From the NCBI GenBank assembly GCA_021826925.1, contig JAKAYB010000003.1, positions 1 through 36,822 on the forward strand: a DNA stretch of 36,822 nt, written 5' to 3'. Each line of letters opens with the position of its first letter. The stretch's first letter is position 1. Source of the stretch: Thermoplasmata archaeon. GTDB taxonomy: Archaea; Thermoplasmatota; Thermoplasmata; Thermoplasmatales; Thermoplasmataceae. A model generated the notes under the pieces. That model was not told the DNA's origin, searched no databases, and saw only the letters and a program-made list of their open reading frames with translations. Both the position numbers and the translations under genes were made by a program. Of this stretch, positions 1,176 through 1,748 are shown piece after piece.

Positions 1176-1338
1176 TTCAAATCACCGTATTCTCTGGAGT
1201 ATGCAGGAGTTTCGAAAAACCCGCTCTGAACTTCGCCTTATATCTAGCTCGTAGTATATTATCTCTCTTATAACTGTACAAATAATAAAGGGAGCATGTC
1301 AGTTACGTTTATGTACATCCAAACCAATATAGATATTG

Positions 1339-1516
1339 ACCACCTCCTTTGTGGTTCGTGAGAGTTAGAGTCGGAGTATGCTCGACAGTCTTCTATTCAC
1401 CCTTGTTTCAGGGTAGTATGTCGAGACGAAGGGCAGCGAATCTAAAGAGCGGCCTCATGGGCCAAGTGAAATTTCTGCTGCCTTCCGACTCTCACGCTAC
1501 ATCGTCATATAGCGTG
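1339..1516 (+). ncRNA. putative IS110-family bridge RNA (structured 5' non-coding region of an IS110-like element)
   Basis: Serial hairpins directly upstream of the IS110 tnp start: ACCAC/GTGGT (1339-1343/1351-1355); CTCGACA/TGTCGAG (1381-1387/1419-1425) enclosing ACCCT/AGGGT (1399-1403/1410-1414); GGCAGC/GCTGCC (1432-1437/1477-1482) enclosing GGCC/GGCC (1451-1454/1460-1463); AGAGTCGG/CCGACTCT (1367-1374/1485-1492); CACGCTA/TAGCGTG (1493-1499/1510-1516). Confidence 0.6.
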
Positions 1517-1593
1517 ATGGAATGCTTAAGACCCAGGAAAGGAAAAATTAACATCCACCTATAGTTATTATGGGATCACCGTTTAAGGAGGTG

Positions 1594-1748
1594 ATGATTC
1601 CACGTATACGGGAATGGATATACATTCAAAAATAATTGTATGCACCACTCTGGATGCAAACGGAAAAATAGTGAGAAAGGACAGTTTTGATAACAGTTTT
1701 GACAGGCTGCAGGAATATATTTTCCAGTTCCATGAGAGAGATATGTTA
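1594..1748 (+). pseudogene. IS110-family (DEDD) transposase, N-terminal fragment only
   Basis: Frame 1596: DSTYTGMDIHSKIIVCTTLDANGKIVRKDSFDNSFDRLQEYIFQFHERDM, typical IS110 N-terminus with the first catalytic Asp (GMDIHSK); similarity stops abruptly near 1745. RBS-like GGAGGTGATG at 1588-1597 lies in a different frame from the homologous stretch. Confidence 0.7.

What the first reader, a model, noticed from the sequence alone, without database searches (positions are those of the whole stretch)
1339..1516. Candidate bridge RNA preserved next to a truncated archaeal IS110 transposase
Directly seen: between a 5' hairpin (ACCAC/GTGGT) and the IS110 tnp start there are two consecutive stem / internal loop / stem-hairpin units. 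Unit 1: CTCGACA [GTCTTCTATTC] ACCCT-TGTTTC-AGGGT [AGTA] TGTCGAG. Unit 2: GGCAGC [GAATCTAAAGAGC] GGCC-TCATG-GGCC [AAGTGAAATTTCT] GCTGCC. Unit 2 is flanked by a long-range AGAGTCGG/CCGACTCT pairing and followed by a perfect CACGCTA/TAGCGTG hairpin. Established knowledge: IS110-group elements express a bridge RNA from the non-coding end 5' of the transposase, with a 5' stem-loop, a target-binding internal loop and a donor-binding internal loop in that order. Inference: 1381-1425 is the target-binding loop and 1430-1484 the donor-binding loop. The unpaired 11+4 nt and 13+13 nt segments would be the guides. The partner transposase is destroyed here, so the RNA could be a relic, or could be used in trans by an intact relative elsewhere in the genome.
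Basis: partly seen in the sequence, partly recalled or inferred. Interest (0 to 1): 0.85.

Follow-up and report, generated by a model that had tools for sequence, protein, structure and literature searches.

The report
Bridge RNA relic, read backwards

Summary
Window 1339-1516 is a real bridge-RNA module: its fold beats shuffles (z -3.1) and it covaries across 31 homologues. An 85% copy in the same genome lies 5' of an intact IS110 transposase on the MINUS strand, and window 1299-1343 is the 14-codon stub of that gene. So the RNA reads 5' hairpin (1516-1493), target loop (1482-1432), donor loop (1425-1381). The + strand IS110 fragment belongs to another element that landed in the 5' hairpin. 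Ends, targets and guides from about 40 homologues support RNA-guided targeting and donor recognition: target-guide matches exceed all 20,000 permutations, and the donor guide matches 7 of 7 nt in all 21 tested. The new point is polarity. This element type (clade F) and a class-wide relative (O) have the RNA upstream, as in IS110, but 10-13 bp subterminal repeats and IS1111 guide order. A sister clade (N) has IS110 order, with F's terminal sequences swapped. Polarity does not follow the transposase tree, so the gene-plus-RNA interior was inverted relative to the ends, most simply in N. Expression and activity are untested. Verdict: an ordinary relic here, a new variant of a known kind overall.

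The parts
1493..1516 (-). 5' hairpin of the bridge RNA (minus strand CACGCTATATGACGATGTAGCGTG); first element of the RNA, cut on its outer side by the insertion of another element
   Evidence: identical in L008; 6 of 7 pairs in this helix show compensatory change across homologues
1484..1491 (-). left strand of the closing helix (GAGTCGGA)
   Evidence: pairs with 1368-1375; 87% of cells paired in 31 homologues
1432..1482 (-). target-binding loop: stem 1482-1477 / 1437-1432, apical hairpin 1463-1451
   Evidence: stem with compensatory changes in 6 of 7 pairs; in intact homologues the two loop strands match the insertion-site flanks
1464..1476 (-). 5' target guide AGAAATTTCACTT; by the F rule it reads the right-end-adjacent target (predicted AG-TGAAATTTCT)
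   Evidence: F rule: 5' guide ~ rc(core+right flank), 0 of 20,000 permutations; this copy's own target is not recoverable
1438..1450 (-). 3' target guide GCTCTTTAGATTC; by the F rule it reads the left-end-adjacent target (predicted CTCTTT-AG)
   Evidence: F rule: 3' guide ~ left flank+core, 0 of 20,000 permutations
1381..1425 (-). donor-binding loop: stem 1425-1419 / 1387-1381, 5' guide GACAT (from 1422), 3' guide GAATAGAAGAC (1398-1388), apical hairpin 1414-1399
   Evidence: one loop base differs from L008; guides match the ends of the intact element (GACAT in rc of left end, ATAGAAG = right end+core)
1368..1375 (-). right strand of the closing helix (minus strand TCCGACTC)
   Evidence: pairs with 1484-1491
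   Evidence: same position before the transposase start in the F homologues
1299..1343 (-). stub of the cognate transposase, VVNIYIGLDVHKRN*
   Evidence: aligns with the start of the intact 383-aa protein of L008
1515..1743 (+). left end and first ~45 codons of a different IS110 element (core TG, left end ATGGAATGC..., P0001 from 1614), inserted into the 5' hairpin
   Evidence: window 1511-1743 is 89% identical to L135 616-849 and similar to L136

Best explanation
The module is the minus-strand bridge RNA of a decayed IS110-family element of Thermoplasmatales ('clade F'); an intact copy sits elsewhere in the same genome. Shown by sequence: intact elements run left flank X - AG - ATGTCATGAAAAAAGTTC - [bridge RNA] - [transposase] - GAACTTTTTTCATAGA - AG - right flank Y. 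The target loop's 5' strand equals rc(AG+Y) and its 3' strand equals X+AG. The donor loop's strands match the element's two ends in the same sense. In the RNA's own frame this is IS621 topology (a CT core at the end of the 5' guide, AG at the end of the 3' guide). The gene-plus-RNA interior, however, points the other way relative to left and right target compared with IS110. That is the guide order of IS1111, combined with an upstream RNA. Inferred: the recombinase binds the RNA, joins the ends into a circle and inserts it at the AG/CT core of a site read by both guides. Sister clade N carries the same ends swapped, so the interior was inverted once, probably by recombination between the subterminal inverted repeats. 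The window copy is a relic: left end gone, gene reduced to 14 codons.
For: Same-genome copy 5' of an intact IS110 gene. Ends fixed by three copies in one complete genome. Covariation. Target pairing: F 19 copies, 119 and 89 against null 80.1 and 70.6, 0 of 20,000 each; the opposite polarity is at null (6,206 and 14,010 of 20,000). O, 9 copies: 0 of 2,000 for both sides. N, 12 copies: the reverse polarity only, 0 and 61 of 20,000. Donor pairing: 3' guide 7/7 in 21 of 21 elements including three O variants, and a right end CATAGGAG predicted from the RNA before it was found. The transposase strand folds better. IS4321 control shows the IS1111 order. F and N ends are homologous but swapped. A clade joining F and O without N is rejected, AU p 3.7e-8.
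Against: No transcript or activity data. The strand test by G-U against A-C pairs was undecided (53 vs 42). Several F copies match their target poorly (G073, G002, G065b), and the register between guide and core slips by 1-3 nt in some. The F+N branch has weak support (81/58) and the tree is midpoint-rooted, so the direction of the inversion is not settled. The window copy's own target cannot be checked: its predicted site gives no clear excess of hits in the genome (36 vs 28 for the reversed pattern).
Confidence: 0.9

Rival explanations
1. One reading: a + strand bridge RNA of the + strand IS110 fragment, with 1381-1425 as target loop and 1430-1484 as donor loop.
For: The helices also form on the + strand and an IS110 start lies downstream on that strand.
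Against: In every homologue the module sits 5' of a transposase on the other strand. The proposed target loop is the conserved one and matches element ends; the proposed donor loop varies with the insertion site. The + strand fragment's own relatives have no such module upstream.
Confidence: 0.03
2. A solo bridge RNA still used in trans: the window copy is expressed and directs circles of the intact L008 element to its own target (CTCTTTAG/TGAAATTTCT).
For: All helices are intact in the window copy although the gene is gone, and the donor guides still match the L008 ends (GACAT, ATAGAAG).
Against: The left end and any junction promoter are lost; preserved structure is also expected of a recent loss; the predicted target is not enriched in the genome. 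No expression data.
Confidence: 0.06
3. F and O are ordinary IS1111-group elements whose RNA happens to lie upstream, like the exception ISMtsp17 named in PMC11187229; no inversion took place and clade N is an unrelated IS110.
For: 10-13 bp subterminal repeats and IS1111 guide order; known exceptions exist.
Against: N shares 46-49% identity with F, the same RNA architecture and the same terminal sequences at swapped positions. F, N and O form one clade, 100/99.
Confidence: 0.2
4. Structured DNA or regulatory RNA with no guide function (for example a transposase attenuator).
For: A hairpin covers the ribosome-binding site of the gene.
Against: Guide-target and guide-donor matches far above permutation.
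Confidence: 0.02

Closest known systems
IS110 group (IS621, ISEc21) bridge RNA / seekRNA elements
   Same: DEDD/S recombinase (PF01548, PF02371, NF033542), RNA upstream of the gene, 5' hairpin then target loop then donor loop, core CT in the RNA frame
   Different: F and O have 10-13 bp subterminal repeats, not 2-3 bp, and read the target with the opposite guide order; a helix closes both loops together (seen here; not reported for IS621 in the text read)
IS1111 group (IS4321, ISEc11)
   Same: long subterminal inverted repeats; [quoted passage not shown]
   Different: in IS1111 the RNA lies downstream of the gene, in F and O upstream; the transposase of clade F is 370-383 aa and about 26% identical to IS4321
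ISMtsp17-type exceptions (IS1111 with upstream RNA, PMC11187229)
   Same: upstream non-coding region with an IS1111-like element
   Different: guide order of that element is not reported in the text read, so identity of arrangement is unknown

Membership tests
IS110 family (superfamily level) | DEDD recombinase with PF01548 and PF02371 and catalytic Ser | tested here: met
   PF01548 80.8 bits, PF02371 79.3 bits, NF033542 239 bits for the L008 protein; DEDD and SG positions align with IS621. The window's own gene is only a 14-codon stub.
IS110 family (superfamily level) | scarless insertion at a short core, site read by RNA loops | tested here: met
   ends and 2-nt core from multi-copy comparison; guide-target permutation tests
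IS110 group | RNA encoded upstream (left end) | tested here: met
   all F, N, O copies
IS110 group | guide order: bottom-strand match 5' of top-strand match | tested here: not met
   F and O show the reverse; sister clade N meets it
IS110 group | no or only 2-3 bp subterminal repeats | tested here: not met
   13 bp GAACTTTTTTCAT/ATGAAAAAAGTTC in F, 10 bp in O and N
IS1111 group | subterminal inverted repeats of 7-17 bp | tested here: met
   13 bp in F, 10 bp in O and N
IS1111 group | guide order: top-strand match 5' of bottom-strand match | tested here: met
   F and O; IS4321 control
IS1111 group | RNA downstream of the gene (right end) | tested here: not met
   right end of F is only a few bases after the stop codon
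IS1111 group | transposase in the IS1111 clade | tested here: inconclusive
   IS4321 and IS621 both sit on very long branches of the tree
Bridge RNA | transcribed and bound by the recombinase | not testable with these tools
   needs RNA-seq and a binding assay

The most novel reading that the evidence does not exclude
Clades F and O are the missing step between the IS110 and IS1111 groups: IS110 becomes F by inversion of the gene-plus-RNA interior across the subterminal repeats, and F becomes IS1111 when RNA and gene change places. Clade N would be a return to IS110 polarity, showing that the recombinase tolerates either orientation of its own RNA gene.
Probability: 0.35. Interest if true: 0.68.

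Novelty: new variant of a known kind. Interest (0 to 1): 0.52.

Why it matters
IS110 and IS1111 elements are told apart by three features that were thought to travel together: RNA position, subterminal repeats and guide order. Here they come apart within one archaeal recombinase clade, and one step (inversion of the interior relative to the ends) explains the difference. That makes the origin of IS1111 from IS110, or the reverse, directly testable. It also gives a new set of archaeal bridge recombinases with computed guides, cores and targets. The relic itself is ordinary decay.

Tried and rejected
Rfam: no match even at E 1, so no known family names the RNA. Strand test by G-U against A-C pairs: undecided, 53 vs 42; replaced by folding both strands and by guide topology. 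RNAalifold on the automatic alignment missed the donor stem and the closing helix; scored with a named structure instead. Search for the window copy's predicted target in its genome: no clear excess over the reversed control. Pfam and NCBIfam on the + strand fragment P0001: nothing, too short. A tree with IS621 and IS4321 could not place F, N and O between the two groups because both references are on very long branches. First N test with 5 copies was only marginal (94 and 24 of 2,000); it became clear with 12 copies. Literature searches found no description of this mosaic, but preprints and most subscription journals are not held.

Full report
What was claimed. I checked the sequence, then looked for the same module elsewhere.

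All stems are present. The fold is better than shuffled sequence (z -3.14). Rfam has no match. An alignment of 31 homologues shows 17 compensated pairs by RNAalifold, and with the full structure written out 90.5% of cells pair, with 118 double changes against 41.5 in shuffles; sliding the partners by 1-3 columns destroys the signal.

The reading must be turned round. A copy of window 1304-1516, 85% identical, lies in the same genome at C33:3909-4123. There it lies directly 5' of an intact 383-aa IS110 transposase on the minus strand (PF01548 and PF02371; NF033542; best solved relatives ISCro4 and IS621). Window 1299-1343 on the minus strand is the remnant of that gene, VVNIYIGLDVHKRN*. Thirty-odd further copies from the same order of Thermoplasmata repeat this arrangement (one named relative is 'Thermoplasmata archaeon WH5.bin20'). 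The transposase strand folds better in 14 of 16 F copies, 4 of 4 N and 6 of 8 O. The + strand start at 1614 belongs to another IS110 element: window 1511-1743 is 89% identical to the left end of L135, and it has landed in the 5' hairpin (...ATATAGCG-TG|ATGGAATGC).

Ends and targets. Three copies in one complete genome (G104) fix the ends: X-AG-ATGTCATGAAAAAAGTTC ... GAACTTTTTTCATAGA-AG-Y. The repeats are 13 bp. I extracted X, Y and both strands of the target loop for 19 clade F copies, checked by script that the strings lie in their loci, and permuted targets among copies. The 5' strand matches rc(AG+Y) (119 vs 80.1) and the 3' strand matches X+AG (89 vs 70.6), each exceeding all 20,000 permutations, while the opposite assignment is at chance. 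Examples: G074 ATGATGGCT, G065a CAATACCT, G063 GCTAAAG. Clade O, elements from another family of the class (transposase about 31-34% identical to F), has the same architecture with ends AG-TGGACGTGAAAACGC / GCGTTTTCACGGG-AG and the same polarity, 0 of 2,000 on both sides; for example L139 GCGGGTCCT and L144 GCATGCTCT, both 9 of 9.

Donor recognition. In all 21 elements compared, the donor loop's 3' strand carries 7 nt identical to one element end plus core, and the 5' strand 4-6 nt of the other end. The match covaries: ACGGGAG, ACAGGAG and ATGGGAG in O; ATAGAAG and ATAGGAG in F; ATAGTAG in N. For one F subgroup the right end CATAGGAG was predicted from the RNA and then found. The window copy's donor loop fits the L008 ends.

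Two polarities. Clade N (46-49% identical to the main F copies) has ends X-CT-ACTATGAAAGAAG ... CTTCTTTCATGACAC-CT-Y. Its 5' guide matches X+CT (0 of 20,000) and its 3' guide rc(CT+Y) (61 of 20,000), not the reverse; for example L187 TCTGATCTCT (10 of 10) and L118 GCACACAAG (9 of 9). Its left end is homologous to the reverse complement of F's right end and vice versa. In the RNA's own frame both clades obey IS621 rules with core CT; what differs is the direction of the gene-plus-RNA block between the ends. F, N and O are each single groups and together one clade (100/99); the best tree joins F with N (81/58), and a tree joining F with O without N is rejected (AU p 3.7e-8). Since F and O share polarity, one inversion on the N branch is the simplest history; recombination across the inverted subterminal repeats is an inferred route.

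Against the literature. The IS110 group has the RNA upstream, short repeats and bottom-strand match first; the IS1111 group has the RNA downstream, 7-17 bp repeats and the order reversed (PMC11208160; PMC11187229). IS4321 as an IS1111 control shows AAAACGGAA = rc(right flank) 5' of the other match (TATTTTC across the joined site) in its downstream region. F and O therefore combine IS110 position with IS1111 repeats and order; N combines IS110 position and order with IS1111-like repeats. PMC11187229 mentions rare IS1111 members with upstream RNA but the text read gives no guide order for them. I found no report of this mosaic in the papers held.

What is shown and what is not. Shown by sequence: strand partner, structure, ends, guide-target and guide-donor matches, polarity. 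Inferred: transcription, binding, circle formation, inversion route. Not settled: whether F/O is an evolutionary intermediate, and whether the relic RNA is still used in trans by the intact L008 enzyme (the donor guides would allow it; promoter side lost; predicted target not enriched).

Noticed in passing
window 1515-1743 and L010 (G000:C22) about 520-735: A second IS110 element with its non-coding region downstream (core TG) is inserted in the 5' hairpin of a clade F element. The window keeps its left half, and C22 keeps its right half followed by F's left end, at the same site (ATATAGCG-TG-TTCCTAAG). Either two hits at one target site or one insertion later split.
   Followed up: partly
L135 1905-2218 (G105:C4): The right end of a relative of that second element abuts a repeat array with unit about 68 bp (GTTTCAAAAGTACTAGTTAGTATGGCAG plus spacer), which looks like a CRISPR array.
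   Followed up: partly
L078 / L122 (G073:C58 near 5843) and L079 / L123 (G070:C3): A clade F and a clade N element stand head to head and share a single core (CTTTCATAGT-AG-ATGTCATG), in two genomes.
   Followed up: no
window about 900-1180, - strand: Frameshifted remnant of another transposase: an N-terminal helix-turn-helix (MTERFTVEQKVQIVIESF..., pieced by eye across frames; PF01527 E 2e-6). The window's first 1.8 kb is a graveyard of insertion sequences.
   Followed up: partly
L095, L096, L098-L101, L103: Many clade F copies keep a well-formed RNA while the gene is broken within the first codons, some at the same spot (after GLDVH or GLD), often by another insertion.
   Followed up: no
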